From assembly GCF_001463765.1 (NCBI RefSeq), contig NZ_BBWK01000075.1, forward strand, positions 1 to 44,068: a stretch of DNA of 44,068 nucleotides. The letters are read 5' to 3'. The notes beneath the pieces were generated by a model, which did no database searches, was not told where the DNA came from, and saw only the letters and a program-made list of their open reading frames with translations. The stretch comes from Aureimonas sp. AU4 (lineage in GTDB: Bacteria; Pseudomonadota; Alphaproteobacteria; Rhizobiales; Rhizobiaceae). Below, one piece after another: positions 7,330-20,779 of the stretch (position 1 is the first letter of the stretch; each line of letters begins with the position of its first letter). Made by a program: the position numbers and the translations under genes.

Positions 7330-8195
7330 GAAGTCTTACGCCGCAACACCGGCCCACCAGGCGCCCACATGAACTGAGGGTGATCCGATGAGACCTCGTC
7401 GCACGCCTCATCGGTCAAGGTTTGCACCGGACGCTCCGAACCCGTTGCAATGACCAGCGATCGGGGGCGCTTCAGGCGAGGCATTGCCGCTAGGGTGCCA
7501 ATCGTATCGCGAATGCCTATGAACTCTGCATGTCTGCCGCGATAACGTCGTTTGATCGCTGCCCGCGCGGATCCAGCCAGGTCCGTTAGAGGAAGCTTCT
7601 CTGCCGACTCGACGAGCTGCAGACGGGTCGTCCCCTTCTTAACCTTCAAGCCGTTGCACGATAGGAGACTTGCGATCTCAGTAGCAGTCATGAGGGAAAG
7701 GTACGCCTGTTTCGTGAGTTTGAAACACCGAGGCGCCACCTTCTGCTTGATCTCGCCGTTGTCCTCGATCCAAAGTCCAACCCCTGGCGGGATCATGCTG
7801 CCAACCGCTGCCTCGAAGCGTTTGGCACTCACGACCACCAGCTTCTCAAAGTGCCTCCGGAACGTGTCGATCTGGCCAGGGAGGCGTGTCAGGTTATCGG
7901 CTTCTGATTTTACCTCGAAGCCCCACAAGTGGCCGTTCGCGAGAACGACATCAGCCCGACGCGACCAGTCGGCAACTGTCATTTCGGAGATGAGAACCGA
8001 GTCCGCATCAACATGGCAAGCGTCGACCAAACGGTCGATCACGGCCGCTTTGATACGATCCTCTGGCTTCGCCGATTCCTGAGTCACGATAACAGTACCA
8101 AATTCCAATCTCGCGGAACGTAGTGCGTTTTTGCAGCTGCCACTGCCATGTCGGCAAGGTTTCCGCAGTTCGTTCGACGCATTCCGCACGGCCAT
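7326..8195 (-). CDS. sce7726-like protein, probable nuclease-fold
   Basis: Up to 289 residues. The core (about 45-130) has the sce7726 plan: a DRIKAAVIDRL helix, 'LISEMTVADWSRRADVVLANGHLWGFEVKSEADNLTRLPGQ' strands and a helix leading to 'FEKLVVVSAKRF'. E-x..-R-x-D-x(12)-E-x-K (RADVVL, FEVKSE, then Q) is the arrangement of PD-(D/E)XK nucleases, so a DNA/RNA-cleaving or -binding role is likely by analogy. ATG 8195 gives the longest form; the family core starts near GTG 8087, and the first 36 residues look poor. Convergent with, and overlapping by 4 bp, the beta-family gene, a pairing known from other genomes. Candidate defence or exclusion gene; not proven. Confidence 0.65.
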   Translation of the reverse strand: MAVRNASNELRKPCRHGSGSCKNALRSARLEFGTVIVTQESAKPEDRIKAAVIDRLVDACHVDADSVLISEMTVADWSRRADVVLANGHLWGFEVKSEADNLTRLPGQIDTFRRHFEKLVVVSAKRFEAAVGSMIPPGVGLWIEDNGEIKQKVAPRCFKLTKQAYLSLMTATEIASLLSCNGLKVKKGTTRLQLVESAEKLPLTDLAGSARAAIKRRYRGRHAEFIGIRDTIGTLAAMPRLKRPRSLVIATGSERPVQTLTDEACDEVSSDHPQFMWAPGGPVLRRKTS

Positions 8196-8399
8196 GGCAT
8201 CGAAGGCACAGCCGAAAGATGTTCCTGATTTGTTCCAAACGCAAGATCTGACCGCAGTCCCACCTCATGCTCTCCTTGCTCACCTGCGGCATGGAACACT
8301 GCTAGTCCATCGGAAGCGATGAGTCAGGATCAGCCTCATAACGGCTGCTGCGGCGGATACGAGCGAGGTTCATAGCTAAGGAACAGGATGTGAACGCGC

Positions 8400-8430
8400 T
8401 GCTACCATTTTGCTACCCAACGCGGTAGCA
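8400..8430. repeat. Spaced TGCTACC repeats, possible recombinase arm sites
   Basis: TGCTACC occurs at 8400-8406 and again at 8411-8417, exactly 11 bp apart (one helical turn), and its inverse GGTAGCA at 8424-8430. They lie about 110 bp inside the tRNA-Ser half site. Tyrosine recombinases bind arm sites of this kind near an attachment core. No integrase gene lies beside them in this window; it would have to be at the other prophage end. Confidence 0.4.
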
Positions 8431-8536
8431 CGGTAAAGGAATAGGCAGGACGAAACCGGAAAGCGCAACGCGAGAAACCAGCAAACGTAGCACGTTAGCG
8501 GATGGTGGCGGACGATGTGGAACGCTCGCAAACGAA

Positions 8537-8575
8537 TTTCAAGACCGCTGCCTTAAACCACTCGGCCACCCATCC
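8537..8575 (-). tRNA. 5' half of tRNA-Ser(TGA), truncated; candidate attachment site
   Basis: Read on the minus strand from 8575, the sequence has the acceptor strand GGATGGG, then the type II D arm GGCCGAGTGGTTTAAGGC, then GCGGT-CTTGAAA with anticodon TGA. After the anticodon loop it diverges: the next five bases do not restore a proper anticodon stem, and no GTTCGAATC T-arm follows, though CCATCCGC about 30 bases on resembles a 3' acceptor remnant. The break in the anticodon loop is where many tyrosine-recombinase elements cross over. The left side (prophage) would then carry foreign sequence and the right side the original gene 5' end. Confidence 0.6.
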
Positions 8576-8870
8576 CGACTCGTCGTCTTCAGCACAGTCG
8601 AATCCGCCGCGTCCGACGAGAAGCGAGCGGCTGTTCGGTTGCCGATGAACGAGCGAGTACCATCGCGCTTTACCGCTCGTAGGGCCGGAGCGTCAATCGA
8701 CTCAACCCTACTGGCTCCCGGTCCAGCCATCGTCTCGTTTCCTGAGGGCGATCATTTCGCACTTCGCCCCCTAACTCGAAAGCGGCGTGTGCGCTCAGAA
8801 CGGACCGCGATTGACCTGTTCTCCATGCCATTTCGGCGCGCATGGCCGACAGAAATAGTTCCTCGGCAGG

Positions 8871-8895
8871 AAGGGCGGGATACAACTCCGCCCTT
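8871..8895 (-). terminator. Hairpin terminator downstream of the glycine-zipper gene
   Basis: AAGGGCGG (8871-8878) pairs perfectly with CCGCCCTT (8888-8895), 9-base loop, giving A/T-ended stems readable from either strand. It sits 31 bp past the stop of the minus-strand gene that ends at 8927. Confidence 0.55.
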
Positions 8896-8926
8896 TCCGC
8901 GCGACCCGCGAAAGCGAGGTGACTGG

Positions 8927-9172
8927 CTACTTGCCGGTCGCCGGTTGCGTCGTGGTCTGGGCTTGGGCTTCGGCTTGCTTCTTAGCCTCGACCTTGGCGC
9001 GATGGCGACCCACGACACATCCGACCGCCGCACCAGCGACTGCGTGTCCCTTACCGATGAAGTGACCCCCGACGCCGCCAACAGCTGCGCCTTTCAGGCA
9101 GCCGGCCGCGTAGGAAGGGGCCGAAGCCATCGTGATGATGGCGACGAGGATCGTTGATGTGACCTTGAACAT
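8927..9172 (-). CDS. Small secreted glycine-zipper protein
   Basis: 81 residues. ATG 9172 is chosen over longer options because GGAG stands 7-10 bases upstream and a clean signal peptide follows (MFKVTSTILVAIITMASAPSYA, cleavage after AYA-like SYAA). The mature part has a Gly/Ala-rich repeat (GAAVGGVGGHFIGKGHAVAGAAVGCVVG) typical of glycine-zipper membrane-inserting hairpins, then a Lys/Ala/Gln/Thr tail. Such proteins are often outer-membrane or stress-related lipoprotein-like factors, but the cysteine at about residue 25 is not in a lipobox I trust. First host gene outside the prophage boundary; own terminator downstream. Confidence 0.65.
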   Translation of the reverse strand: MFKVTSTILVAIITMASAPSYAAGCLKGAAVGGVGGHFIGKGHAVAGAAVGCVVGRHRAKVEAKKQAEAQAQTTTQPATGK

Positions 9173-9383
9173 CGATTTCTCCATACAATGTGCCGGATGT
9201 TTACCGGCGATTGTCGCCCTCGGTTCACCCGAAGAGCGCGCTCCATTGTTCCTAGGACCGGCAATCAGAAGGCATCCGTATGCAGACGGATGTGAATCCG
9301 CCTGCGTGATCCGGGTTCCGATATGCCGATCTCGGTGGCGTTGATTCATCGCTCGGGCGCGACGATGTACGATCGGCGCGACG

Positions 9384-10721
9384 TCATCCGAGATGGCGCA
9401 CGACATCCGCTGCAGCCGCCAACGTCAGGTCGACGTCCGTTTCGGTGTGTGCGAAAGACAGGAAGAGATTCTCGTAGGCGCCGGGATGGAAGAGGATTCC
9501 TCGCTCGATCATTCCCAGCCACCAGCGTCGAAACATGTCTTGGTCGGCGTGTCGCTCGGCGTCGCGGTAATTGCGGATCTGCGTTTTTGAGAACCATACC
9601 TGAAGCACCGGCCCGAGACCGACGACATGGGCCGGAAGCTTCTCGCGGGCGAAAATCTCCTCAAGACCCAAGCGCAGCCGATCCGAGATGGCGTAAAGCC
9701 GATCGTAGGCACCGGGGACGGCGAGTTCGTCGAGCGTCGCATTCGCGGCGGCCACCGCTATGCCGTTGGCCGTATAGGTTCCCGCAAGCGAGACCGTGCC
9801 GTCCGATACAAGGCTCATGATGTCGCGCCTTCCACCTATGGCCGCTACCGGGAAACCGCCGCCCAACCCCTTGGCGAAGACCGACAGGTCGGGCGTAATC
9901 CCAAAGACGCCTTGCGCGCCGGCCAGACTCAGACGGAAACCCGTGATCACCTCATCGAAGATGAGCAGGATGCCGGCGGCCGCGGTCATGTCGCGCATGG
10001 CCTCGAGATAGCCGGGTCCGGGTAGAATGCAGCCGGTGTTGCACATCATGGGTTCGGTCAGGACCGCCGCGATCTCGTGGCCATGAACGCGGATGGCGTT
10101 GCGCAAGGCCTCGATGTCGTTCCAGGGCAGGATCAGAAGGTTCTCCTCCACGCCTTTGGGCAAGCCGGGGCCCTGGGGAACGGGGATCGGGCTTCCATCC
10201 GGGCCGGCATCGGCGATCTTCGGATGCTTGCTCCAGTAAACGGCGTCCGAGAACCCATGGTACATGCCCTCAAAGCGAACGATACGCCGACGACCGGTGA
10301 AGGCCCGAGCGAGGCGAGTCGCGTAGAGCACGGCTTCGGTGCCGGTGTTCGAGAGACGCACCTGCTCCACGCTCGGCACGGCCGCGATGATCTTGCTCGC
10401 GAGTTCGGCTTCCGCTGCGGCCGGTAGCGCAAATACCGTACCGACATTCTCGATCTGGTTGACGACCGCTCGCGTGACGCGCGGCGGGCGGTGCCCCAGC
10501 AGCATCGGTCCGAGCCCAAGCAGGTAGTCGACATAGTCGTTGCCGTCCGCATCGACGACATGCGAGCCGTAGCCGCTCGAGACGAAAAGCGGATAGGGCT
10601 CCCAGCCGGACCACGTTGCGCGTGCGGTGGAGTTGACGCCGCCCGGGATCACGTCCTGGGCCTTCGCGAACAGGCTCGCGCTCATGACGGTCTCGCGCTG
10701 CATCTTCAGGGCGACGTTCAT
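9384..10721 (-). CDS. Class III PLP aminotransferase, glutamate-1-semialdehyde aminomutase-like
   Basis: 445 residues, the usual length of HemL-type enzymes. Moves an amino group using PLP in the cytoplasm. Visible landmarks: IPGGVNS near 25-31, LSNTGTEAVLYA (123-134) for phosphate binding, MYHGF (153-157), LIFDEVITGFR (253-263) with the pyridine-binding Asp, and FAKGLGGGFP with Schiff-base Lys284. True HemL serves haem synthesis, but here the gene faces an eight-gene operon across a shared sigma54 control region, so a dedicated role in that pathway is more likely than tetrapyrrole synthesis. ATG 10721 is chosen because the frame upstream runs into the regulatory DNA. Substrate unknown. Confidence 0.8.
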   Translation of the reverse strand: MNVALKMQRETVMSASLFAKAQDVIPGGVNSTARATWSGWEPYPLFVSSGYGSHVVDADGNDYVDYLLGLGPMLLGHRPPRVTRAVVNQIENVGTVFALPAAAEAELASKIIAAVPSVEQVRLSNTGTEAVLYATRLARAFTGRRRIVRFEGMYHGFSDAVYWSKHPKIADAGPDGSPIPVPQGPGLPKGVEENLLILPWNDIEALRNAIRVHGHEIAAVLTEPMMCNTGCILPGPGYLEAMRDMTAAAGILLIFDEVITGFRLSLAGAQGVFGITPDLSVFAKGLGGGFPVAAIGGRRDIMSLVSDGTVSLAGTYTANGIAVAAANATLDELAVPGAYDRLYAISDRLRLGLEEIFAREKLPAHVVGLGPVLQVWFSKTQIRNYRDAERHADQDMFRRWWLGMIERGILFHPGAYENLFLSFAHTETDVDLTLAAAADVVRHLG

Positions 10722-10740
10722 CGCATATCTCCGACAGGGA

Positions 10741-10771
10741 CCGGGTAAGTCCCGGCCGATCGCCATCGGCC
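10741..10771 (-). promoter_or_regulatory. Two adjacent leader hairpins of the aminotransferase mRNA
   Basis: CCGGG-taagt-CCCGG (10741-10755) abuts and shares two bases with GGCCGAT-cgcc-ATCGGCC (10754-10771). Both lie between the predicted minus-strand sigma54 start and the ATG at 10721, hence in the 5' untranslated RNA. Perfect stems of 5 and 7 bp. They could stabilise the mRNA or act in attenuation; no run of U follows closely. Confidence 0.45.
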
Positions 10772-10802
10772 GATACGGCGCGGATGGTCTGCCAGAGCGC
10801 TT

Positions 10803-10818
10803 TGCAACCCTCGTGCCA
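10803..10818 (-). promoter_or_regulatory. Sigma54 promoter driving the aminotransferase
   Basis: On the minus strand TGGCACGAGGGTTGCA fits the -24/-12 consensus TGGCAC-N5-TTGCW exactly. The -12 GC lies about 85 bp before the ATG at 10721, leaving a leader of roughly 70 nt. Confidence 0.8.
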
Positions 10819-10902
10819 GATCGTGGAAAGGCCTGCCTCGACGAGGCTTGAAGCCGGAGTCGCTCCTGACCGCCGCAGACGCAGCCACAGGATGCGTGGA
10901 TA

Positions 10903-10919
10903 CCTCCATAATTTGGAGG
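10903..10919. promoter_or_regulatory. Upstream activator palindrome 1
   Basis: CCTCCATAATTTGGAGG, a 6-bp inverted repeat around 5 bp. Its core CTCCATAATTTGGAG differs from the second copy (10997-11011) at two positions. The centre is about 94 bp from the minus-strand -24 element, a normal distance for an NtrC-type enhancer. Probable site for the Fis-type HTH of the activator at the operon end. Confidence 0.65.
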
Positions 10920-10996
10920 ATCGCATGGATTCACATGTCACCCCCGGGGCTTACGCGGGATCTAGGCTTCACGACCCGCGTTTGCGGTGGCCCGAT

Positions 10997-11011
10997 CTCC
11001 AAAGTTTGGAG
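10997..11011. promoter_or_regulatory. Upstream activator palindrome 2
   Basis: CTCCAAAGTTTGGAG, a perfect 7+1+7 palindrome, matching the first copy at 13 of 15 positions. Its centre is 93 bp from that of copy 1 and about 75 bp upstream of the plus-strand -24 element. Confidence 0.65.
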
Positions 11012-11077
11012 GGGGTTCACGACCCGGATCATCATGGGTTAGCCGGTGGGACCGGCTCGGCACCCATCGTGTCGATC

Positions 11078-11093
11078 TGGCATGGTGCTTGCA
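11078..11093 (+). promoter_or_regulatory. Sigma54 promoter driving the eight-gene operon
   Basis: TGGCATGGTGCTTGCA matches TGGCAC-N5-TTGCW with one substitution outside the invariant GG and GC, which are correctly spaced. It lies about 47 bp before the ATG at 11140. Confidence 0.75.
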
Positions 11094-11139
11094 GCGGAGT
11101 ATGCCGAGGGCGCGAGACGCCCACAGCAAGGGCCGGTCC

Positions 11140-11808
11140 ATGGCATTCGACATTCTCTGCGACTTCGACGGCACGATTACGACCCGCGACGTGACGGACT
11201 TCCTTCTGGAACGCTTCGCGGCACCCGGCTGGCGCGATTGGGAGGCGCGTTGGGAGGGTGGTGAGATAGGGTCGCGCGAGTGCATGGCCCGTCAGATCGA
11301 ACTTCTCCGCTGTTCGCTCGCCGAGTTGGAAACGTCGCTCGCGGACGTGGGGATCGATCCGGGTTTTCCAACCTTTCTGGGTCTTGCGCGCAGTCTCGGC
11401 GCACGTCTGGCGGTGGTCAGCGACGGGATCGACTATGCCATCCGCTCGATCCTCAGCAACGTCGGTGCCGGTGACGTACCAGTCTTGGCAAACCGGCTCG
11501 TGAGGGAGGGTGAGCGGCGCTTCCGGCTCGAGCACCCCCACGCTCGCACAGACTGCGCTTCCGTGGCCGGTACCTGCAAATGCGCCGCCGCGGCCAGGCA
11601 GCGGACGGGCACTCCGGTCATCATGATCGGCGACGGACGCTCGGACTTCTGCGCCAGCTCGGCCGTCGATCTCGTCTTCGCCAAAGGCGCGTTGGCAGAC
11701 CATTGCGAGCGCGAGAAGCGACCGTACCTTCGCTTCGAGACGTTTGCAGACCTCGCGGCCATGCTGCCGGGCGCGCTCATCCACCTGCGAGGGCGGGAGG
11801 CGGCATGA
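11140..11808 (+). CDS. HAD-IB family phosphatase, MtnX-like
   Basis: 222 residues. Removes phosphate from a small metabolite by an aspartyl-phosphate route in the cytoplasm. Motif I DFDGTIT holds nucleophile Asp8 and acid Asp10; motif II is VVSDG; motif IV is IGDGRSDFCAS with the two Mg-binding Asp. A cluster TDCASVAGTCKC between motifs is typical of MtnX-like sequences, but no other methionine-salvage gene is present, so that pathway is unlikely. The ATG at 11140 is the first that gives a proper motif I at the N-terminus and sits 47 bp after the sigma54 element. The stop overlaps the next start (ATGA). First gene of the operon; physiological substrate unknown. Confidence 0.8.
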   Translation: MAFDILCDFDGTITTRDVTDFLLERFAAPGWRDWEARWEGGEIGSRECMARQIELLRCSLAELETSLADVGIDPGFPTFLGLARSLGARLAVVSDGIDYAIRSILSNVGAGDVPVLANRLVREGERRFRLEHPHARTDCASVAGTCKCAAAARQRTGTPVIMIGDGRSDFCASSAVDLVFAKGALADHCEREKRPYLRFETFADLAAMLPGALIHLRGREAA

Positions 11809-12740
11809 TCGCATCCCCTATTCGCGTCCTCGACCTCGACGGAAGCCTTACGCGCCAGTCACCCATACGCGAGCGTCTCCACGACGGGCGCGCGGCGCAG
11901 CTGGACCTTGCCGCCCTTGGGCCGCGTCTGAGGCTCTGGTCGAACACAGACAGTTGGGACCGACTGATGGAAGCGCTCGGCGAAGCGGATGCCGCTGGTC
12001 AGATGCCCCGTTTGACCATGGTCGGCTCCGGCGACTTCCATCACGTTACGGCGGCCCTTCTCGCGCGCGCGCCTGGGCCCCTTACGGTCGTTCACTTCGA
12101 CAATCATCCCGACTGGTGCCGCTGCTTCCCCTCCCGTCATTGCGGAGCCTGGGTCAACATGGCCTTGGAGATGGAGCATGTCCGTCGCGTCGTGACGATT
12201 GGTCCCTGTTCCGACGACCTCGACCGGCCGGATCGCAAACGCGCCAATCTCGGCGCCCTGTCTGAGGGGCGACATCAGGTTTTTGCCTGGCGACGAGCGC
12301 CTACGACAACCCGTTTCCCGGTCACCTGCGGCGAGGGTCACGATTGCCGTGGGGGCCTTCTGTCATGGCGCAACGTCGCGGACGAGGACTTTGCGGCCTT
12401 CATGCAAGGCGTCGTCGAGCGGATCCCGACCGCGCGCGTCTGGATAACCGTCGATAAGGACGTGCTTGCCCCTGCCGAAGCTCTAACGAACTGGGATCAA
12501 GGTCTCATGCCGCTCGAGCGTCTGACCGAGGCCCTACGCATCGTCGCCGATGCGCGACGGATCGTCGGCGCCGACATTTGCGGAGAGTATGCCCCGCTGC
12601 GCCATCACAACCCGATGAAGATCGCCGAATGCCTCGTCGACCAGCCAAGTCGTCCGTCCGAAGCCTGTCTGGAAGCAGGTCTCCTGCGCAATGCCGAGAC
12701 GAACCGTATCCTGCTTGATGCCTTCGAGGCCTTGTTGTGA
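11805..12740 (+). CDS. Arginase/ureohydrolase-fold metalloenzyme
   Basis: 311 residues, the normal length of arginases and agmatinases. All six expected metal ligands seem present: His79 in SGDFHH (for GGDH), Asp99, His101 and Asp103 in FDNHPD (for DAHxD), and Asp217 and Asp219 in TVDKDV (for SxDxDxxDP). The surroundings of these motifs differ from true arginases: the loop after DNHPD carries CRCFPSRHC and a later loop TCGEGHDC, four extra cysteines that might bind metal or form the substrate pocket. It probably hydrolyses a C-N bond (guanidino, formimino, or amide) on an amine intermediate. ATGA overlaps at both ends show strict co-translation. Substrate not deducible from sequence. Confidence 0.75.
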   Translation: MIASPIRVLDLDGSLTRQSPIRERLHDGRAAQLDLAALGPRLRLWSNTDSWDRLMEALGEADAAGQMPRLTMVGSGDFHHVTAALLARAPGPLTVVHFDNHPDWCRCFPSRHCGAWVNMALEMEHVRRVVTIGPCSDDLDRPDRKRANLGALSEGRHQVFAWRRAPTTTRFPVTCGEGHDCRGGLLSWRNVADEDFAAFMQGVVERIPTARVWITVDKDVLAPAEALTNWDQGLMPLERLTEALRIVADARRIVGADICGEYAPLRHHNPMKIAECLVDQPSRPSEACLEAGLLRNAETNRILLDAFEALL

Positions 12741-13093
12741 ACGCGGCCCTGCCAGTCCTGTGCGTCACAGTCATGCTCGACGTCGTCGGACAGCTTCTTT
12801 TCAAGCGGGGCCTGGATGGCTCGCACGAGGCTATTGAGGACAGCCTTATGTGCCGTGTCCTCGGCTCGCCCGCCATTCTGTGCGGCGTTCTCGTTTATGG
12901 CGCCGAGTTCACCGCCTGGCTCTTTGTTCTTTCGCGTCTCGACCTTTCGGAAGCCTTTCCGATCGCTACCCTCTCCTATGTCGGCGTCGTGCTCGCGAGC
13001 CGCTTCCTTCTCGGCGAGATGATTCCGCCCCGCCGGTGGATCGCCACCGTCATGATCGCTGCCGGCGCGGCCCTAGTCGGAGCCAATGCATGA
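12737..13093 (+). CDS. SMR-family transporter subunit 1
   Basis: 118 residues, four predicted membrane helices, the size of single-domain small multidrug resistance proteins and of ArnE/ArnF and MdtI/MdtJ. TM1 (LCVTVMLDVVGQLLFKRG) aligns with EmrE TM1 (AEVIGTTLMK) so that Asp15 stands at the position of essential Glu14. TM3 region LSEAFPIATLSYVGVVLASRFLLGE matches the family's AY/F..W.G signature region, and a final short helix ends in ALVGANA. A second SMR gene lies four genes on, so a heterodimer is likely. Moves an amine or lipid-linked head group across the inner membrane by inference. Overlaps both neighbours. Confidence 0.75.
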   Translation: MNAALPVLCVTVMLDVVGQLLFKRGLDGSHEAIEDSLMCRVLGSPAILCGVLVYGAEFTAWLFVLSRLDLSEAFPIATLSYVGVVLASRFLLGEMIPPRRWIATVMIAAGAALVGANA

Positions 13094-13962
13094 ACGCCCC
13101 ATTTCAAACGTCCGTGCCATCCGGCGAGGGCTTCCGTTTTCGCGGCGGCGATGCGGCTGTCCTGCTGATTCATGGCCTCGGCGGAACGCCTGCGGAGATG
13201 AAGATCGTTGGGAAACGCATCTCGCAGGCCGGGTTCACCGTGGAAGGACTGCGTCTTCCCGGCCATTGCGGTACGCAGGCGGATCTGGTCGCGACACGCT
13301 GGACGGATTGGGCGGATGCAGCCTGTGGGGCGGCGGAGCGACTGGCGGGGCTTCACGAGCGCGTCTTCGTCGGAGGACTGTCGATGGGCGCGCTCTTGTC
13401 CCTGATGGTTGCTGCCAAGTTAGGCGATCGCGTCGACGGAACGCTTCTCTACTCTCCGACCCTTTTCTACGACGGGTGGAGCATACCGCGCTCGCACGTC
13501 CTACTCTCCCCTGCCCTCGCGTTGGGCTTCAGCCGCTTCTGCACGTTTCGGGAAAGCTATCCCTTCGGCCTCAAGGACGATCGGCTGCGCGCGAAGATCG
13601 TCGCCGCCATGACGAAGGGGCACAGCGATGAGGCGGGGCTGCTCGACACGCCGGGGGCGAGTCTTCATGAACTCCTGAAGCTGATCCGCACCGTCAAACG
13701 CCGTCTTGGCGAGATCCGAACACCGAGCCTCGTCCTCCAAGCCAACGAGGACGACGTCAGCAGTCCGCGCAATGCCCGCTTCATAGCGCGTCGCAGTGGC
13801 GGTCCGGTCGAAACCCATCTCCTTCATGACAGCTACCACATGATCACTGTGGACCGGGAACGAGGAAGGGTCGCCGACCTGTCGGTGGACTTCATGCGGC
13901 GGCACGGGGCTCCGAGCGCCGTCGCGTCGGAGACCCTCCTTCGGGAGAGCTCACCAACATGA
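13090..13962 (+). CDS. Alpha/beta hydrolase, carboxylesterase or monoacylglycerol lipase-like
   Basis: 290 residues. Serine hydrolase with LLIHGLGGTP (oxyanion HG) at 26-34, nucleophile elbow GGLSMG with Ser98, a late acid in QANEDD and the catalytic His in SYHMITVD. Resembles bacterial carboxylesterases of the Est30 and monoglyceride lipase group that act on short- or medium-chain acyl esters. No signal peptide, so cytoplasmic. Start ATG overlaps the previous stop (ATGCATGA region) and the stop overlaps the N-acyltransferase start. Placed next to that acyltransferase it may release or transfer an acyl group, or hydrolyse an ester intermediate. Confidence 0.8.
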   Translation: MNAPFQTSVPSGEGFRFRGGDAAVLLIHGLGGTPAEMKIVGKRISQAGFTVEGLRLPGHCGTQADLVATRWTDWADAACGAAERLAGLHERVFVGGLSMGALLSLMVAAKLGDRVDGTLLYSPTLFYDGWSIPRSHVLLSPALALGFSRFCTFRESYPFGLKDDRLRAKIVAAMTKGHSDEAGLLDTPGASLHELLKLIRTVKRRLGEIRTPSLVLQANEDDVSSPRNARFIARRSGGPVETHLLHDSYHMITVDRERGRVADLSVDFMRRHGAPSAVASETLLRESSPT

Positions 13963-15095
13963 ACAAGCAATTCGCTCTTCACACGACCGTCGAAACGGTA
14001 GGGCGTGCGGCATGGGAAAGCTGTTTCCCGAACGAGGCGGAGAACTTCGACTTTTTCCTGGCTTGCGAAGAGGCCGGTCCGCCCGGCTTCATGTGGTTCT
14101 ACGCTGTTCTGTCGGATGAGGCGGGACCGCTCGCCATCGTGCCCGCCTTCGGCACGCGCTACCGACTGGACACCACCCTTCAGGGACCTCTACGTCGCGT
14201 CACCGACCGCTTCTACCGCTTCATCCCACGTTTGATGGAGGTGAGCCTCTTCGCGCTCGGCTCCCCGGTTGCCGAGATCTGTCAGGTCGGCATAGCCGCG
14301 CGCGCACCGGACCGGCTGGAGGCACTGCGCCGCCTCGTTGCGGCTGCCCGCACAGAGGCGGAAGGGCTTGGATACGGCTTGTTCGCCGTAAAGGATGCGG
14401 CCGAGGCAGATCGCGCGCTTTGGGAGCCGATCGCGAGCGAAAGCGGCTTCGCCTTGCTCCCGGGTCTGCCGACGGCCAGTCTCGATCTACCCTTTGCCAG
14501 CGTCGCGGACTATCTCGCGAGCCTTGGTCGCAACACGCGCAAGGACCTGAAACGCAAGTCCAAGGCGTTTAGCGGCGTCCGTGTCGAGCGCCGGCGCAGT
14601 ATCGACGACGTCGCCGACACGATCTACGCGTTGTACTGCCAGACCGTCGAAAGCAGCGAACTCCAGTTCGAGTACCTGCCGCGCGACTATTTTCCCGCCA
14701 TGCTCTCGCGGCTCGCGCCCAATGCCTCCATGGTCCTCTACTATCACGACGAGAGACTGTTCGGCTTCAACTTCGTCATCGAGACGCCGACACGGCTCAT
14801 CGACAAATATATCGGCATGGACTACGCCGTCGCACGGGATCTCAATTTCTACTTCAACAGTTGGATGGTGAACGTGGCCTGGTGCATCGAGAACCGGGTT
14901 CCCGTATATCAAAGCGGACAGGCGTTCTACGGGCCGAAGCTGCGGCTTGGCTGCCGACTGTCGCCGAACGAGCAGTATTTCCGGCATCGAAACCGTGCCG
15001 CCAACGCGCTCCTTCTTCAAATCGCTCGGTTTGTGCGCCTCGACCGCTTCGATCCCGCGATTGCCGATCTTGTCGACGCGAGAGAGGCAGGATGA
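13959..15095 (+). CDS. FemAB/GNAT-type N-acyltransferase
   Basis: 378 residues. Two GNAT-like halves, as in the Acetyltransf_6 / FemAB_like group: an N-terminal lobe (1-165) and a C-terminal lobe with YLASLGRNTRKDLKRKSKAF (about 186-205), a helix IYALYCQTVE, then strands MVLYYHDERLFGFNFVIET, KYIGMDYAVARDLNFYFNSW and a final YQSGQAFYGPKLRLGC turn. The group moves acyl or aminoacyl groups to an amine (peptidoglycan interpeptides, exosortase-linked systems, bacterial ceramides). Its presence beside an aminotransferase suggests an amine acceptor made by the pathway; that is inference. Overlaps upstream and downstream genes by 4 bp each. Confidence 0.7.
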   Translation: MNKQFALHTTVETVGRAAWESCFPNEAENFDFFLACEEAGPPGFMWFYAVLSDEAGPLAIVPAFGTRYRLDTTLQGPLRRVTDRFYRFIPRLMEVSLFALGSPVAEICQVGIAARAPDRLEALRRLVAAARTEAEGLGYGLFAVKDAAEADRALWEPIASESGFALLPGLPTASLDLPFASVADYLASLGRNTRKDLKRKSKAFSGVRVERRRSIDDVADTIYALYCQTVESSELQFEYLPRDYFPAMLSRLAPNASMVLYYHDERLFGFNFVIETPTRLIDKYIGMDYAVARDLNFYFNSWMVNVAWCIENRVPVYQSGQAFYGPKLRLGCRLSPNEQYFRHRNRAANALLLQIARFVRLDRFDPAIADLVDAREAG

Positions 15096-15490
15096 GTTCC
15101 GTTCAGGTTTCCTCGAAACCTCGATTGCGCCCGCGGACGTTCGCCGCCTGGAGCGGCCTCGTCATCTTCGAGACGCTCGCGCAGGCAGCCATGAAGGCAG
15201 GCGGCGCGGCGCTGTCCGGGCTTCCTTTCGGCCGAGCCTTCGTCGTCGCCGCAGTCGGAGAGCCGCTCGTGCTGGTCGGCGCGGTCGGTTATCTCCTGTC
15301 GTTTGCCGCCTGGATGATGATCCTCGACCGGGTGCCCTTGTCCCGGGGATTCCCCATGAGCTCGATCGTGACGCTCGCGATCGTCTCGGCTTCCGTGCTT
15401 TTCTTCGGCGAGGTCGTGGATGGCTGGCGCCTGTGCGGCATCGGCCTCATTCTTGGTGGTTTGTTTCTCATGGGCGACGAGAGCGAATGA
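15092..15490 (+). CDS. SMR/EamA-type transporter subunit 2
   Basis: 132 residues, four hydrophobic helices after a basic N-terminus (about 20 residues). TM1 (LVIFETLAQAAMKAG) places Glu27 at the EmrE Glu14 position, so unlike its partner it keeps glutamate rather than aspartate. TM3 carries VPLSRGFPMSSIVTLAIVSASVLFFGE, parallel to the partner's LSEAFPIATLSYVGVVLAS segment. Being a separate gene in the same operon with an acidic residue in TM1, it most likely forms an asymmetric heterodimer with the product of 12737-13093, in the manner of MdtIJ (spermidine) or ArnEF (lipid-linked aminoarabinose). The stop overlaps the kinase start. Confidence 0.75.
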   Translation: MSSVQVSSKPRLRPRTFAAWSGLVIFETLAQAAMKAGGAALSGLPFGRAFVVAAVGEPLVLVGAVGYLLSFAAWMMILDRVPLSRGFPMSSIVTLAIVSASVLFFGEVVDGWRLCGIGLILGGLFLMGDESE

Positions 15491-17247
15491 GGAGACCGTT
15501 CGGCTGGTGGCGCCGTTCGATCCGATGGAAGCTCGTGGCGATCCTCGCCATGGTCTGCGTCGTTCCAATGCTCATCACGTCGCAGATCGCGGCTTCCGTC
15601 GTGTCGGCGACTTACCAAGAAAACGTCGAATCCTGGCTGACGCAGATCGGCCGCTTCTTCCTGGCCGGCGTCGCGCGCGGCGGAACGGAGGCAGGTCGTG
15701 CGCTGGAGACCCCCGAAATCCGTCGCCGCGTCGATCATATCGCTTCCCGTGTGCGTACCGCGCGTTCGCTTGGGGGATGGAGGGAGGATTCGGAGCCATT
15801 CGGTTTCGACCTCCTGACACTGCGTGAGCCGGACGGGCGGCTCCTCTACTCGAACGAAAGCGTCGAGGAGCTCAAACGCCTTCCGTTTGAAGGCAGCCAG
15901 GCTGTGTATCTTTTCCGTGGAGACGGCCGCACGCTTCTCGTCACCGGGCGCGACCAACGTATCGATACGTCGACCGGACCTGTCGACGTCTTTCTCGGCA
16001 CCTTTCTCGATGCGTCGTTCATCGAGGATATCGATACGATCGGTTCGCTCGACCTCACGCTCTTCTATCGTATCGATGGATCGTTGACCCCGGTTTACTC
16101 GTCATCGGGTGCGCCCGCCGGAAATCGCCTGTCTACGGAAGTCCAGTCTCGGCTCGAGCAACTCGCGCCGGGCGACTATCTCGACACCCCGGGACGCTCT
16201 GACGGCTCGGCGATCGGAGTTTACCTGCCGATCGAGAATGGCGACCAGCTGAACGGCGTGATTGCCTGCTCGCTCGACCTCGATCTCGGAAGCCTTCCGA
16301 TCCTCGGATCGCACCGGCTGCTCCTTCTGGTCTTTGCCACGGGCATGGTTCTCGCCATGCTCGCCGGCATCGTCTTGTCGGCCTTCGTGACGAGACGCGT
16401 CGCGCAGCTGTCGGCCGGCGTCGGTGCGGTCGCGGCGGGTGACTTCACGCAGCGCATCGCCGTCTCGGGCGAGGATGAACTCGACCATCTCGCGATCGCA
16501 TTCAACGCCATGTCGGAGCAACTGCAGGACTATCGCCGTCTCCAAGGGCGGCTCAGACGCAAGGAACGCTTCGCGACGCTCGGAGAGATAGCGGCGGGCT
16601 TCGCACATGAGGTTCGCAACCCGCTCGGTATCATCAAGACGACCGCCGAACTCGTTCAGCGAGGGTCGAGCGTCGAGGCTGACCGGCGACGCCTTGGATA
16701 CGTCGCAGATGAGGTGCGACGCATCGACCGGCTGATCCGCGACTTCCTGGTCTTCGCGCGGCCCGTACAGCGCACGAGCTTGGTGACCTCCGATGAGCTG
16801 ATGCGTCATACGATGGCCTCCTGCCAGACGGCAGCGGACGGTCAGGGCATCGCGCTGATCGTCGAAAATAGGGCGGAAAGTGCTCTTCTGCGCGTCGATC
16901 TCGATCAGATCGTCCAGGCGTTCCTGAACCTCGTCATCAACGCTCTGCAGGCCATGGATAGCCGCGACGCCGGGCGCATCCGCATCGACGTCACCCGGCT
17001 GGCGGAACCCGGTTCGGTGTCCTTTCTCTTTGCGGACGAAGGTCCGGGCATCCCACCGGAACTTCTGGAGCGCATCTTCGACCCCTTCGTCACGACGAAG
17101 GAACAGGGAACCGGCCTCGGTCTTGCGACCGTCTTCGCGATCGTTGAGAGTCATGGCGGCTGGATCGAGGCGCGCAACGGCGAACGAGGGGGAGCGGTCT
17201 TCGAGATAACCCTGCCACTAGCCGAAGCTGCACTCACATCAACCTGA
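15487..17247 (+). CDS. Membrane sensor histidine kinase of NtrB type
   Basis: 586 residues. TM1 at about 17-37, a periplasmic sensing region of about 230 residues that resembles a Cache-type ligand domain, TM2 around 279-301, a HAMP linker (RVAQLSAGVGAVAAGDF), then HisKA with phosphoacceptor His374 in FAHEVRNPLG, N box NLVINALQAMD, G1 DEGPGIP and G2 GTGLGLATV. It passes phosphate to the sigma54 activator encoded 5 bp downstream. ATG 15487 overlaps the preceding stop, supporting it as start. The ligand is unknown; its periplasmic location implies that the signal is outside the cytoplasm, perhaps the exported product or its target. Confidence 0.85.
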   Translation: MRRPFGWWRRSIRWKLVAILAMVCVVPMLITSQIAASVVSATYQENVESWLTQIGRFFLAGVARGGTEAGRALETPEIRRRVDHIASRVRTARSLGGWREDSEPFGFDLLTLREPDGRLLYSNESVEELKRLPFEGSQAVYLFRGDGRTLLVTGRDQRIDTSTGPVDVFLGTFLDASFIEDIDTIGSLDLTLFYRIDGSLTPVYSSSGAPAGNRLSTEVQSRLEQLAPGDYLDTPGRSDGSAIGVYLPIENGDQLNGVIACSLDLDLGSLPILGSHRLLLLVFATGMVLAMLAGIVLSAFVTRRVAQLSAGVGAVAAGDFTQRIAVSGEDELDHLAIAFNAMSEQLQDYRRLQGRLRRKERFATLGEIAAGFAHEVRNPLGIIKTTAELVQRGSSVEADRRRLGYVADEVRRIDRLIRDFLVFARPVQRTSLVTSDELMRHTMASCQTAADGQGIALIVENRAESALLRVDLDQIVQAFLNLVINALQAMDSRDAGRIRIDVTRLAEPGSVSFLFADEGPGIPPELLERIFDPFVTTKEQGTGLGLATVFAIVESHGGWIEARNGERGGAVFEITLPLAEAALTST

Positions 17248-17252
17248 GGGCC

Positions 17253-18638
17253 ATGACACACACGATTCTGATCGTCGACGACGAGGAGCGGCTGCTCGAC
17301 GTTCTGGGAGGCATGCTGGAAAGTCTCGGCTATGGAATCGTTCAGGCTTCCAGCGGTGCGTCGGCGCTCGTAGCCTTGGAGCGTGAGCCGGTGGACCTCG
17401 TTCTCACCGATCTGAGGATGCCCGGCGTGTCGGGGCGAGAGCTCCTGGCCGAAATCCGCCGTGCTCACCCTATCCTGCCGGTCGTGGTGATGACCGCCTT
17501 CACGACGCTGCGCGAGGCGGTGCAACTGATCAAGGGGGGCGCCTTCGATTACATTGGCAAGCCGATCGAGCTGGATGAGCTGGAGGCGACCGTCGGCAAC
17601 GCTCTCAACCTCCACGATGCGCTTCGCGACAACGACCGGCTACGCCGCGAACTCGTCGGCCGCTACAGCATCGATGGCATGGTCGGCAATTCGCCCGCGA
17701 TGCAGGAGGTGATGAAGCTCGTCACCGAAGTCGCCTCTTCACGCACCACGGTTCTCGTGACGGGCGAGAGCGGGACCGGCAAGGAGGTCGTTGCGCGGGC
17801 GATCCACTTCAACGGGCCGCGGCAGCGCAAGCCCTTCGTGGCCGTGAACGCGGCCGCGATACCTGAGCAGCTTCTGGAGAGCGAGTTTTTCGGGCATGTG
17901 AAAGGTGCGTTCACGGGCGCGACCGCCAACCGCGTCGGGCGCTTCGCGCAGGCCGACGGCGGGACCTTATTTCTAGACGAGATCGGCGACATGCCGCTCT
18001 CTCTCCAAGCCAAGATCCTTCGCGTCCTGCAGGAGCGCCAGTTCGAGCCGGTCGGCTCTCCTCAGACACGCAATGTCGACGTCCGCATCGTTGCGGCTAC
18101 CAACCGCGATCTCAAGGCGATGGTCGCGGACGGGCGTTTTCGGGAAGATCTCTTCTATCGGCTCGCGGTGTTCCCGATCGCGCTTCCGCCCTTGCGTGAC
18201 CGGCGCGGCGACATCCCGCTTCTCCTTCAGCGCTTCACGGCGGAGATCGGACTTCAGGTCGGGCGCAGGGGCGTCGGCTTCAGCCCGGCGGCGACCGAGC
18301 ACCTGACGGACTACGGCTGGCCCGGCAACATCCGCGAGTTGCAGAACTGCGTCGAACGGTCGCTCATCACCTCGAAAGGCGCGACCATAGAGGTCGAGGA
18401 CTTGCCCCCCTATGTCGCCGACCGGCCGGCTGCCACCCTCGAAGAGACCCGACCGGTGTTTCCGATCGACCTCGATGCGGCGGTCGACGCTTTCGAGCGC
18501 GGTCGCATCCTCGCGGCGCTGCGCGAGACGAACGGCGTGCAAGTCGAGGCGGCTCGGCTTCTGGGTATCAACGAGCGCAGCCTCTGGCACCGTATCAAGA
18601 AGCATGGCGTCGTCGTGTCGAAGACCGTCGCCGCCTGA
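17253..18638 (+). CDS. NtrC-family sigma54-dependent response regulator
   Basis: 461 residues. Receiver domain with phosphorylated Asp53 in LTDLRMPG and Lys103; AAA+ domain with Walker A GESGTGKE (171-178), the sigma54-contacting GAFTGA (219-224), Walker B GGTLFLDEIG, and the arginine finger region; C-terminal Fis-type HTH (VEAARLLGINERSLWHRIKK). Complete, so it should activate sigma54 promoters. It ends the operon headed by a sigma54 promoter and probably binds the two CTCCAWARTTTGGAG palindromes 6 kb upstream, giving positive autoregulation and coordinated control of the divergent aminotransferase. Converges with the next gene 6 bp away without a clear terminator. Confidence 0.9.
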   Translation: MTHTILIVDDEERLLDVLGGMLESLGYGIVQASSGASALVALEREPVDLVLTDLRMPGVSGRELLAEIRRAHPILPVVVMTAFTTLREAVQLIKGGAFDYIGKPIELDELEATVGNALNLHDALRDNDRLRRELVGRYSIDGMVGNSPAMQEVMKLVTEVASSRTTVLVTGESGTGKEVVARAIHFNGPRQRKPFVAVNAAAIPEQLLESEFFGHVKGAFTGATANRVGRFAQADGGTLFLDEIGDMPLSLQAKILRVLQERQFEPVGSPQTRNVDVRIVAATNRDLKAMVADGRFREDLFYRLAVFPIALPPLRDRRGDIPLLLQRFTAEIGLQVGRRGVGFSPAATEHLTDYGWPGNIRELQNCVERSLITSKGATIEVEDLPPYVADRPAATLEETRPVFPIDLDAAVDAFERGRILAALRETNGVQVEAARLLGINERSLWHRIKKHGVVVSKTVAA

Positions 18639-18644
18639 CGTGGA

Positions 18645-19358
18645 TCAGCGAAGGCCAGACAGGCGAAAGGAAACGTCGAATTCCAGCCCGAGGGTGTTCT
18701 GGACGGCACCGTTTCGGGCGCCATTCCCCGCGAGCGGAACCTGTAATTCGTCGTAGGCTGTTATGGACAGCGTATCGTTGACGGGAACCTTCAGAACGGC
18801 GGTGGCTTCCGCATAGAAGCGATCGCTGACCGGGTTTCGCTCTCTCGTATCGGCCGTGGTGCGAAAATAATCCCGATCGCCGAGGGTCAGGCGCGGACCG
18901 ATCGACGCGGTCGCCGAGCGAATGGGAAATACGGCGTCGCTTCCGAAGGTGACGTGGCCGCCGCCGCCGCGTAGATCGTGGAGCGCCTCGATGCGCAGGC
19001 GCAAGCGATCTTCGACGGCCCAGTATTCGGCAAAGGCACCAGCGTCCAGAGCGAAGCGGCCATCCGCGTAGCGGAAATCGATTGCGGGACCGAACGTCAT
19101 GGGGCCGCTTTCCAACAGCGAGAGTCCCGAGGCATCGTCCGGCGCGCCGAACCCTGCGGGCTCGTCGGCGCGTCGGATATCGATCGTCGTAGGCAAGATC
19201 GACTTGCCACCGCCGGTCGCAACCTCGGCGCTCAATCCAAGCGTTGCGATCCAGCCGGGTGCCGCCATCGAAAGGCCGGCTTCCACGCCATCGTCGGCCC
19301 GCGCCCAACCGGACGCAACGATCATGGGTAGCAGGATGGCGATCCGAACTTTTCTCAT
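18645..19358 (-). CDS. MipA/OmpV-like outer-membrane protein
   Basis: 237 residues. Signal peptide MRKVRIAILLPMIVASGWARA (cleaved near residue 21), then alternating strands with aromatic girdles and a C-terminal strand (LGLEFDVSFRLSGL) in keeping with a beta barrel. Length and layout fit the MipA/OmpV group, whose members bind MltA or act as porins; identity is moderate. Convergent with the response regulator and only 6 bp apart. It might be an outlet for the neighbouring exported product, but it is oppositely oriented and has no visible sigma54 promoter, so that link is weak. Confidence 0.5.
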   Translation of the reverse strand: MRKVRIAILLPMIVASGWARADDGVEAGLSMAAPGWIATLGLSAEVATGGGKSILPTTIDIRRADEPAGFGAPDDASGLSLLESGPMTFGPAIDFRYADGRFALDAGAFAEYWAVEDRLRLRIEALHDLRGGGGHVTFGSDAVFPIRSATASIGPRLTLGDRDYFRTTADTRERNPVSDRFYAEATAVLKVPVNDTLSITAYDELQVPLAGNGARNGAVQNTLGLEFDVSFRLSGLR

Positions 19359-19602: not shown

Positions 19603-20766
19603 TCAGCGACCGGGCATCGCATTACCGGCGGGAGTCGCGGAAGGGCGCATGTCCGGCCCAAGGGTTGTGGACGGTCCCGCCGTCGCGGCCCACGTCGCAA
19701 TGGCAATGAAGAACATTGCATAGAGTGCGGCGATGGAACGAAGCACCGATGGGTTCAGTCCGTCGATCACGCGGCGCAGGCGGCGGTAGAGCCAAACGTC
19801 AATTATGCCAAAGGGGATTGCGATGAGGAGTGGCACGACGATCGCCGCCACCCAGAGAAGCGGCGTTGGAAGCGGTGGGCGACCGATCAGCAGACCGATG
19901 ATCAGGGGAACGTGACAAAGGTAGAGCGCGTAGCTCCAGTCGCCGTACCGGTCGAGTATCCGCAGTCCTGCGGCCTGTCCCGTCGCCTCACCTTTCGATC
20001 GTGAGACGCAGAGACCGACGAGGACGACAGCCGCGAAGGCCGCAACCCAGCGATCGACCCCAAATCCCCCCATTCCAAAACCGAACGTGACGATGACGGC
20101 GACGGCCGCAACGACCGGGTTGAAGACGCCTCTTGCCCGAAGCGAGGGGATAAGTAGCCCCCCGGCGAATGCGGCGTTGACCGCCATGATCGGCATCAGA
20201 TCGATCGTCGGCGTCAGAATGGTCTGAGCGGCGGGAAACGCCCACGTCCCGCCGGCGGACACCAGAAGCCAGCCCCCTGCGACCAGTGGAAGGCGGTGCC
20301 GCAGCCCTAGTAGGGCGAGGCCATAGAGCAGGACATAGAAGGTGATCTCGAAAAGCAGGGTCCATTCGACCCCGAGATAATAGATCCGCCCCTCGCCGAT
20401 GGGCACGAGGCTGAGGGCGAGGACATCGAAATCGAGCCATTTGCGCCGCGCGAAATACAGCGCGCCGAAGATGATGAGGAAGATCGGGTAGATGCGCACC
20501 AAACGATGCACGAGGAAGGTCGCGGCGTCGGTTCTCGGCAGGATCTCGGCCATCAGATATCCCGACAGCGCGAAGAAGATGGCGACGCCGAGGAAGCCGA
20601 GCCGTCCGTCGAAGACCGCGGCGAAGCGGCTATCTCCCGTGAATCGCTCGAGATAAACGCCGGCGTGATAGACCACCACGCTGAGCGCGGCCACCGCGCG
20701 AAGCCACTGCAACTCACGGCTGCGCCGGCCACGGTCTCGCGTCAGCAAGCCGGGTGACAGGCTCAT
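19603..20766 (-). CDS. Membrane acyltransferase family 3 protein
   Basis: 387 residues with about ten membrane helices. Family landmarks: RELQWLRAVAALSVVVYHAG (first helix with catalytic His), FLGVAIFFALSGYLM, and RLVRIYPIFL. This family O-acylates sugars on exopolysaccharide, lipopolysaccharide, Nod factors or glucans at the inner membrane. ATG 20766 is preferred to longer options because it follows 13 bp after the stop of the phosphatidylcholine synthase gene, the usual spacing within an operon. Acceptor unknown. Confidence 0.8.
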   Translation of the reverse strand: MSLSPGLLTRDRGRRSRELQWLRAVAALSVVVYHAGVYLERFTGDSRFAAVFDGRLGFLGVAIFFALSGYLMAEILPRTDAATFLVHRLVRIYPIFLIIFGALYFARRKWLDFDVLALSLVPIGEGRIYYLGVEWTLLFEITFYVLLYGLALLGLRHRLPLVAGGWLLVSAGGTWAFPAAQTILTPTIDLMPIMAVNAAFAGGLLIPSLRARGVFNPVVAAVAVIVTFGFGMGGFGVDRWVAAFAAVVLVGLCVSRSKGEATGQAAGLRILDRYGDWSYALYLCHVPLIIGLLIGRPPLPTPLLWVAAIVVPLLIAIPFGIIDVWLYRRLRRVIDGLNPSVLRSIAALYAMFFIAIATWAATAGPSTTLGPDMRPSATPAGNAMPGR

Positions 20767-20779
20767 GCCGTCCGCCACC

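What the first reader, a model, noticed from the sequence alone, without database searches (positions are those of the whole stretch)
9384..18638. Candidate undescribed pathway: amine synthesis, N-acylation and SMR export under two-component sigma54 control
Aminotransferase, HAD phosphatase, arginase-fold hydrolase, SMR subunit, serine hydrolase, FemAB/GNAT N-acyltransferase, second SMR subunit, sensor kinase and activator are arranged with ATGA/GTGA-type overlaps across nearly all joints. I know of no named pathway with this set. The enzymes fit production of a modified amine or acyl-amine, exported by a dedicated heterodimeric pump and sensed from the periplasm.
Basis: inference. Interest (0 to 1): 0.85.

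Follow-up and report, generated by a model that had tools for sequence, protein, structure and literature searches.

The report
Conserved amine-lipid synthesis and export operon
A block of enzyme and transporter genes with its own sensor system, kept together across many proteobacteria, looks like an undescribed pathway that makes a fatty, amine-bearing compound and moves it across the cell membrane, but its product is not yet known.

Summary
The gene set is real and conserved. One eight-gene operon, 11140-18638 (+): HAD-IB phosphatase, arginase-fold hydrolase (ARG), SMR, alpha/beta hydrolase, FemAB-like GNAT, SMR, sensor kinase, sigma54 activator; six of seven joints are 4-base overlaps. The GSAM-like aminotransferase (9384-10721) is divergent, not in that operon. 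The 418-base gap holds two exact outward sigma54 sites and two palindromes whose exact pattern occurs nowhere else in the genome; relatives keep this layout. Of 24 other sampled genomes with ARG, 16 carry the whole enzyme and SMR set together; so do 11 of 12 plasmid records opened. Relatives add a fatty-acid desaturase (10 of 36 loci), cyclopropane synthase (8 of 36), ACP plus ketoacyl synthase (3), and an FtsX-type ABC/TolC exporter (7 of 42): a lipid-like product is likely. The SMR pair is ArnE/F-like but keeps the membrane acid of EmrE/MdtIJ that ArnE/F lack, so a cationic amphiphile is the likelier cargo. Ten paper searches found no description. Product, reaction order, transport and signal are inference.

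The parts
9384..10721 (-). GSAM-like class III aminotransferase (AT), divergent unit
   Evidence: Pfam Aminotran_3 E 4e-59; over the cut-off of the GSAM subfamily model NF000818 (441 of 398 bits), below the HemL equivalog (419 of 527) and GntE (400 of 525) cut-offs
10803..10818 (-). sigma54 (-24/-12) promoter-like site in front of AT
   Evidence: exact consensus match; kept in relatives
10904..10918 (.). upstream palindrome 1 (CTCCATAATTTGGAG)
10997..11011 (.). upstream palindrome 2 (CTCCAAAGTTTGGAG)
   Evidence: spacing 93 here, 91-92 in three Aureimonas loci
11078..11093 (+). sigma54 promoter-like site in front of the operon
   Evidence: exact consensus match; kept in relatives
11140..11808 (+). 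MtnX-like HAD-IB phosphatase (HAD)
   Evidence: NCBIfam TIGR01489 102 bits, over cut-off 81.55
11805..12740 (+). arginase-fold metallohydrolase (ARG)
   Evidence: Pfam Arginase 34.7 bits over 22; metal-ligand positions invariant in 38 of 38 rows; fold search best agmatinase
12737..13093 (+). SMR/EamA subunit 1
   Evidence: Asp15 at the EmrE Glu14 position
13090..13962 (+). alpha/beta hydrolase (ABH)
   Evidence: Pfam Hydrolase_4 66.7 bits over 27
13959..15095 (+). FemAB-like GNAT transferase (GNAT)
   Evidence: PF04339 and PF13480 over cut-off; fold search best FemX (model mean pLDDT only 57.6)
15092..15490 (+). SMR/EamA subunit 2
   Evidence: Glu27 at the EmrE Glu14 position
15487..17247 (+). 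HAMP sensor histidine kinase (HK)
   Evidence: HAMP, HisKA, HATPase_c over cut-off
17253..18638 (+). NtrC/AtoC-type sigma54-activating response regulator (RR)
   Evidence: Response_reg, Sigma54_activat, HTH_8; GAFTGA is in the sequence
18645..19358 (-). MipA/OmpV-like outer-membrane protein, convergent neighbour; possible part
   Evidence: Pfam MipA E 1.2e-6; MipA-type gene in 14 of 36 loci

Best explanation
This is a dedicated, signal-controlled pathway that makes an acyl-chain-bearing amine (an aminolipid) and moves it across the inner membrane. Proposed mechanism. (1) The sensor kinase phosphorylates the NtrC-type regulator, which binds the two palindromes and fires two divergent sigma54 promoters (architecture shown; binding and activation inferred). 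(2) The aminotransferase and the HAD phosphatase turn a phosphorylated carbonyl precursor, for example a triose or sugar phosphate, into a small amino alcohol or diamine (inferred from enzyme class and pairing). (3) The FemAB-like GNAT joins a fatty acyl group to one amine, from acyl-CoA or acyl-ACP (inferred; ACP and ketoacyl synthase genes sit in three relatives). (4) The arginase-fold enzyme hydrolyses a guanidine, amidine or amide on the same molecule and leaves a free, positively charged amine; the alpha/beta hydrolase trims or releases an acyl ester (inferred). (5) The SMR heterodimer, which keeps the proton-coupling acid, moves the cationic amphiphile to the periplasmic leaflet (inferred). 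In relatives a desaturase, a cyclopropane synthase or an FtsX-type ABC/TolC exporter tailors the chain or carries the product further out (inferred from co-location).
For: Unit conservation: HAD, AT, ARG, two SMR, ABH and GNAT lie in one fetched stretch in 16 of 24 sampled genomes with ARG at E<=1e-15 (hits; neighbourhoods), in both Aureimonas loci from the GNAT search and in 11 of 12 plasmid records opened, of 49 matched. ARG and GNAT distances across 30 loci correlate at r=0.961. Lipid link: fatty-acid desaturase in 10 of 36 loci, CFA synthase in 8 of 36 (families checked on L017 proteins). In L017-L019 the desaturase lies between the sigma54 site and AT, and the CFA gene follows RR on the same strand. 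ACP plus FabF-like KAS in 3 loci. FtsX/ABC/HlyD/TolC exporter in 7 of 42 loci. Cationic cargo: acid at the EmrE Glu14 position in 58 of 66 SMR rows (two duplicate reference rows removed) and at least one per locus in 34 of 34 loci with an SMR hit; 4 of the 38 loci scanned had none. E. coli ArnE and ArnF have Ser and Ala there, EmrE, MdtI and MdtJ have Glu. PMC9574504 (passages) says lipid SMRs often have Asn there and may not be proton coupled. Metal ligands of ARG. Control region.
Against: In the window and the Aureimonas loci no desaturase, CFA, ACP or KAS gene was found next to the cluster, so the lipid link there is by homology only. The GNAT model is weak (mean pLDDT 57.6) and its best fold match, FemX, is an amino acid transferase. 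Eight second SMR subunits (L056, L071, L074, L076-L080) have Asn or Ser, as lipid SMRs do. ARG stands without the other genes in three genomes of one family (L020-L022), and one genome has a two-piece ARG without HAD, AT or GNAT beside it (L023). No substrate was identified. Correlated distances partly reflect shared ancestry, and the loci are not independent.
Confidence: 0.5

Rival explanations
1. Lipid aminoacylation: the FemAB-like protein transfers an amino acid from aminoacyl-tRNA to a lipid amine or hydroxyl whose head group AT and HAD make, and the SMR pair flips the product; the likely use is to lower the negative surface charge against cationic peptides.
For: Best Foldseek hits are FemX; lysyl- and alanyl-PG synthase structures appear lower (ranks 18 and 44). 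In A. fabrum 2788 the cluster lies next to genes for lipid A phosphoethanolamine transferase and diacylglycerol kinase. MipA/OmpV neighbours.
Against: Model confidence is low, and an acetyl-CoA-binding tandem GNAT also ranks high (2wpw/2wpx). ACP and KAS genes in three loci point to acyl-ACP. The phosphoethanolamine transferase neighbour was seen in 1 of the 11 opened plasmid records that carry annotation.
Confidence: 0.2
2. A diffusible natural product (an N-acyl amine used as antibiotic, signal or metal carrier), not a membrane lipid: a small secondary-metabolite cluster with its own exporter.
For: Patchy distribution and plasmid location; ABC/TolC exporter in 7 and DegT aminotransferase in 11 of 42 loci; GSAM-like aminotransferases occur in secondary metabolism (GntE model 400 bits).
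Against: Desaturase and CFA synthase genes recur, and CFA synthases act on membrane phospholipids (recalled). No synthetase or large assembly enzyme among the ten window proteins.
Confidence: 0.22
3. Undecaprenyl-linked sugar modification, a relative of the Ara4N (arn) route.
For: Among five E. coli SMR proteins both subunits match ArnE best (E 2.9e-9 and 7.8e-9), and the best NCBIfam models are ArnE for SMR1 and ArnF for SMR2. DegT aminotransferase in 11 of 42 loci. A UppP gene near two loci (L070 by annotation; L024 by a 34% match).
Against: No glycosyltransferase family among the ten window proteins, whereas arnC and arnT are in the E. coli operon. The membrane acid is present here and absent in ArnE/F.
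Confidence: 0.05
4. Unrelated housekeeping genes that happen to lie together (AT for heme, HAD for methionine salvage, ARG for arginine).
For: Automatic names: glutamate-1-semialdehyde aminomutase (its subfamily model NF000818 is passed), MtnX-like, arginase.
Against: The genome has ALA synthase (657 bits) and no GluTR over cut-off. HemL, MtnX and agmatinase equivalog cut-offs are not reached. Conserved synteny and promoters.
Confidence: 0.03

Closest known systems
arnBCADTEF (Ara4N lipid A modification), E. coli
   Same: Operon with an aminotransferase and a heterodimeric SMR pair of the ArnE/ArnF kind (PMC9574504 passages)
   Different: No glycosyltransferase found here; SMR subunits keep the central acid; arginase-fold, HAD, GNAT and ABH genes instead of the arnA, arnC, arnD and arnT enzymes
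MdtIJ / EmrE SMR transporters
   Same: Membrane acid at the Glu14 position in both subunits; MdtIJ is an obligate pair (PMC9574504 passages)
   Different: Sequence nearer ArnE/ArnF; lies in a biosynthetic operon
Ureohydrolases (agmatinase, guanidinase, proclavaminate amidinohydrolase)
   Same: Fold and metal ligands
   Different: 23-24 bits to the agmatinase models, far below cut-off; own conserved motifs around GSGD-HH, DNHPD, DKD and NWDQG
FemX and related tandem GNAT transferases
   Same: Predicted fold
   Different: 13-14% identity in the fold match; no significant PDB relative by sequence (best E 0.36)
Ornithine or glutamine lipid synthesis (OlsB-type; recalled)
   Same: A GNAT-superfamily N-acyltransferase makes an aminolipid (recalled)
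   Different: Here only PF04339 and PF13480 were hit
GSAM/HemL and GntE (guanitoxin) aminotransferases
   Same: AT passes the GSAM subfamily model NF000818
   Different: Below the HemL and GntE equivalog cut-offs

Membership tests
Ara4N (arn) pathway | ArnE/ArnF-type SMR pair | tested here: inconclusive
   ArnE best of five E. coli SMR proteins, E 2.9e-9 and 7.8e-9, but the central acid differs; ArnE/ArnF equivalog cut-offs not reached
Ara4N (arn) pathway | ArnC and ArnT glycosyltransferases in the operon | tested here: not met
   No glycosyltransferase family among the ten proteins scanned against Pfam
Heme C5 route (HemL) | HemL equivalog score, and glutamyl-tRNA reductase in the genome | tested here: not met
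   419 of 527 bits for the equivalog, although the broader GSAM subfamily model is passed; GluTR model not over cut-off while ALAS is
Ureohydrolase (arginase) superfamily | fold and binuclear metal ligands | tested here: met
   Pfam over cut-off, ligand positions in 38 of 38 rows (assignment by recalled arginase motifs), fold hits
Agmatinase proper | equivalog score | tested here: not met
   22.8 of 174.3 bits
Ornithine-lipid type aminolipid synthesis | OlsB-type N-acyltransferase family (recalled) | tested here: not met
   Only FemAB_like and Acetyltransf_6 reached the limit
NtrC/AtoC two-component sigma54 systems | receiver, AAA+ sigma54 domain, HTH_8; sigma54 sites with upstream palindromes | tested here: met
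   activation itself not testable here
Aminolipid biosynthesis (functional claim) | an amine-bearing lipid lost on deletion | not testable with these tools
   needs lipid analysis of mutants
Bacterial ceramide/sphingolipid route | serine palmitoyltransferase | not tested
   none among the ten scanned proteins; the rest of the genome was not searched for it

The most novel reading that the evidence does not exclude
A previously undescribed class of bacterial membrane lipid: a cationic acyl-amine whose free amine is unmasked by an arginase-fold enzyme and which is flipped by a proton-coupled SMR heterodimer, so that an EmrE-type antiporter has become a lipid transporter. The same pathway runs with either of two distant class III aminotransferases and with different kinds of regulator, in at least Alpha- and Gammaproteobacteria.
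Probability: 0.3. Interest if true: 0.85.

Novelty: new variant of a known kind. Interest (0 to 1): 0.63.

Why it matters
The cluster sits in Rhizobium, Agrobacterium, Sinorhizobium, Phyllobacterium, Aureimonas, Roseomonas, Azospirillum and Xanthomonas records under generic annotations. If it makes a cationic lipid, it is a new way to alter the bacterial surface and a rare case of an SMR pair with a proton-coupling acid serving lipid traffic. The gene set, the dedicated regulator and the promoters are defined well enough for a direct deletion and lipid-analysis test.

Tried and rejected
Considered and rejected: AT as a heme enzyme (ALAS present, GluTR not over cut-off). RR as a global regulator through this palindrome: the exact pattern occurs only in this intergenic region; with one mismatch allowed there are 7+7 matches against 14+16 for the reversed control pattern. 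Viral copies of ARG: none confirmed. PDB relatives of the GNAT by sequence: none significant.

Papers: ten searches. Seven asked for combinations of the cluster's gene names, one for the FemAB-like family (84), one for bacterial ceramide synthase (83), one for SMR lipid flippases (100). None listed a paper on this gene set. I saw search listings only, except passages of PMC9574504 and PMC7835334. The library lacks most subscription papers and the search is by word, so this is weak evidence of absence.

Led nowhere: two GNAT homologues in the ARG-alone genome G139 (28% identical; L097, L098) lie in other surroundings. My gene-calling script misreads frames in places (for example antisense calls in L068), so presence counts use tblastn or raw ORFs. 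The TM prediction for SMR2 split the first helices, so I make no claim on the topology of the pair.

Dropped before counting: five weak ARG matches (E between 1e-15 and 1e-3: G001, G004, G046, G092, G114). 37 of the 49 plasmid matches were not opened. The named genome collection was scanned once, with one protein, and gave two Aureimonas loci. Close relatives are counted as separate loci throughout.
Full report
1. What is there. The window holds an operon of eight genes on the + strand, 11140-18638, and a divergent aminotransferase at 9384-10721. Six of seven joints are 4-base overlaps and the last is a 5-base gap. Families: MtnX-like HAD-IB phosphatase (over its cut-off), Arginase Pfam family (34.7 bits over 22), two EamA/SMR subunits, an alpha/beta hydrolase of the Hydrolase_4 kind, FemAB_like plus Acetyltransf_6, a HAMP histidine kinase and an NtrC/AtoC-type sigma54 activator. 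A convergent MipA-like gene follows (18645-19358).

2. Control region. The 418 bases between the aminotransferase and the phosphatase carry two exact sigma54 sites facing outward (2 found, 0.03 expected) and two palindromes, CTCCATAATTTGGAG and CTCCAAAGTTTGGAG. In the whole genome the exact pattern occurs only here; one-mismatch matches are not above the control pattern. In three Aureimonas loci (L024, L025, L069) both promoter sites and two palindromes are kept, with palindrome spacing 92, 91 and 92 against 93 here; the first palindrome of L069 is imperfect. In three genomes of another family (L017-L019) both promoter sites are kept and a different 25-base palindrome, GCGAGCTACAAAACTTGTAGCTCGC, lies between them. 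Roseomonas L070 and Azospirillum L075 have a shorter form of that palindrome; their sites are weaker on one side (L070) or both (L075). L055 has both promoter sites but no palindrome by this test. A wider scan asked for sites with at least 11 of 12 consensus positions in 14 loci with an NtrC-type regulator and 10 with a short regulator lacking the sigma54 domain (grouped by me from length and annotation). Of the 14, 13 have such a site directly in front of a cluster gene (L075 is the miss). Of the 10, four have a site somewhere (L056, L074, L077, L080; the L080 one scores 12) but none faces the start of the cluster. Control by this regulator is therefore well supported by architecture, not shown.

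3. Conservation as a unit. ARG searches covered 199, 385 and 398 genomes of the order, class and phylum, the window's own included each time. At E<=1e-15, 24 other genomes had it (7, 2 and 15). In the fetched stretches (read) 16 of 24 hold HAD, an aminotransferase, ARG, two SMR, ABH and GNAT together. Two are cut by contig ends (L060, L067). Two are partial or split: L062 lacks HAD and AT in the stretch, and L065 has HAD, AT and ABH at a second locus, L099. Three, of one family, have ARG without the rest (L020-L022). One has a two-piece ARG with ABH, a kinase and the exporter only (L023). Both named Aureimonas loci from a GNAT search are complete. Of 49 plasmid records with ARG I opened 12, chosen: 11 complete, and Bartonella L073 with AT, GNAT and ARG only. 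Hosts of the opened records are Aureimonas, Roseomonas, Agrobacterium, Rhizobium, Sinorhizobium, Phyllobacterium, Azospirillum, Bartonella and Xanthomonas sacchari. Across 30 loci ARG and GNAT distances correlate at r=0.961 and the other pairs of ARG, GNAT, ABH and HAD at 0.74-0.86 (0 of 999 permutations as high); shared ancestry contributes.

4. Two interchangeable aminotransferases. Of 38 loci with ARG, 10 have the GSAM-like enzyme of the window (600 bits or more to it), 23 have another class III enzyme (22-26% identical to the window's; 670 bits or more to the L057 one), none has both, and five have neither (L020-L022, L062, L065). I read this as replacement at one step.

5. What relatives add. 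Of 36 loci: fatty-acid desaturase in 10, CFA synthase in 8, MipA-type gene in 14. With the six stretches (42 in all): DegT aminotransferase in 11, FtsX-type ABC exporter with HlyD and TolC genes in 7. ACP plus FabF-like KAS in 3 (L062, L063, L072). The families were checked on one representative each by Pfam, most also by NCBIfam. In L017-L019 the desaturase lies between the sigma54 site and AT, and the CFA gene follows the regulator on the same strand, so both are placed to belong to the regulon there. This is the main reason to think the product has an acyl chain. Close relatives are counted separately.

6. Enzyme evidence. ARG keeps His79 and His80, Asp99, His101, Asp103, Asp217 and Asp219 in 38 of 38 rows, the metal-binding set of arginases by recalled motifs; which His binds is not resolved. 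Its model (mean pLDDT 64.7) matches agmatinase best (E 7.3e-5), then arginase, metformin hydrolase and guanidinase. It is far below the agmatinase cut-off. The GNAT model is weak (57.6); its best matches are FemX and a tandem GNAT of the clavulanate pathway. The genome has ALA synthase and no GluTR over cut-off, so the aminotransferase, although it passes the GSAM subfamily model, is unlikely to serve heme.

7. Transporter evidence. The SMR subunits are of the ArnE/ArnF kind: ArnE is the best of five E. coli SMR proteins for both, and the best NCBIfam models are ArnE for SMR1 and ArnF for SMR2, below cut-off. But at the EmrE Glu14 position the window has Asp15 and Glu27; EmrE, MdtI and MdtJ have Glu; ArnE and ArnF have Ser and Ala. 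Across the 34 of 38 loci with an SMR hit, 58 of 66 subunits have Asp or Glu there; the other eight are second subunits whose partner has Glu. PMC9574504 (passages only) says the central glutamates bind cationic substrate and protons, that lipid SMRs often have Asn instead, and that a membrane portal lets alkyl tails extend into the bilayer. A proton-coupled carrier of a cationic amphiphile fits both facts.

8. Interpretation. The best reading is a regulated pathway for an amine-bearing acyl compound moved across the inner membrane by the SMR pair. Shown: gene set, synteny, promoter and palindrome layout, active-site residues, the SMR acid. Inferred: substrate, order of steps, acyl transfer, transport, inducing signal. 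The A. fabrum 2788 locus lies beside genes for lipid A phosphoethanolamine transferase and diacylglycerol kinase, which hints at envelope stress, but this is 1 of 11 opened plasmid records with annotation. Rivals: aminoacyl transfer to a lipid, a secreted small molecule, or an arn-like sugar route; the last is disfavoured by the lack of a glycosyltransferase.

9. Novelty. Ten paper searches found no description of the set (see Tried and rejected for what each asked). I rate it a new variant of a known kind (regulated lipid or amine modification operons), with a real chance that the product is a new lipid class.

Noticed in passing
L079:16874-18909: In Agrobacterium fabrum 2788 the cluster is followed by genes annotated as lipid A phosphoethanolamine transferase and diacylglycerol kinase, a hint of envelope remodelling.
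   Followed up: partly
L023, about 8250-11370: Genome G085 has the arginase-fold gene in two pieces beside ABH, a kinase and the ABC/TolC exporter, and no GNAT match in the genome: apparently a decayed copy.
   Followed up: partly
L020-L022, about 9200-11300: Arginase-fold gene without the cluster, next to a conserved gene of about 207 aa, in three genomes of one family; hydrogenase-type genes nearby in L020 and L021 are my reading by eye.
   Followed up: no
L073:7407-13410: The opened Bartonella plasmid (bat isolate) carries AT, GNAT and ARG only, beside an MBOAT O-acyltransferase gene.
   Followed up: no
L065 and L099: One genome (G773) has two loci of two sub-types: GNAT2-ARG2-SMR-SMR in L065, and HAD-AT-ABH-GNAT-kinase-regulator with a MipA gene in L099.
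   Followed up: partly
window 6268-7329: Beta_protein family gene (PF14350, E 4e-45) in the lowest-GC block of the window (0.567 at 6001-8000); it may mark a mobile insert.
   Followed up: no
window 19603-20859: Acyl_transf_3 family O-acyltransferase gene just beyond the MipA-like gene.
   Followed up: no
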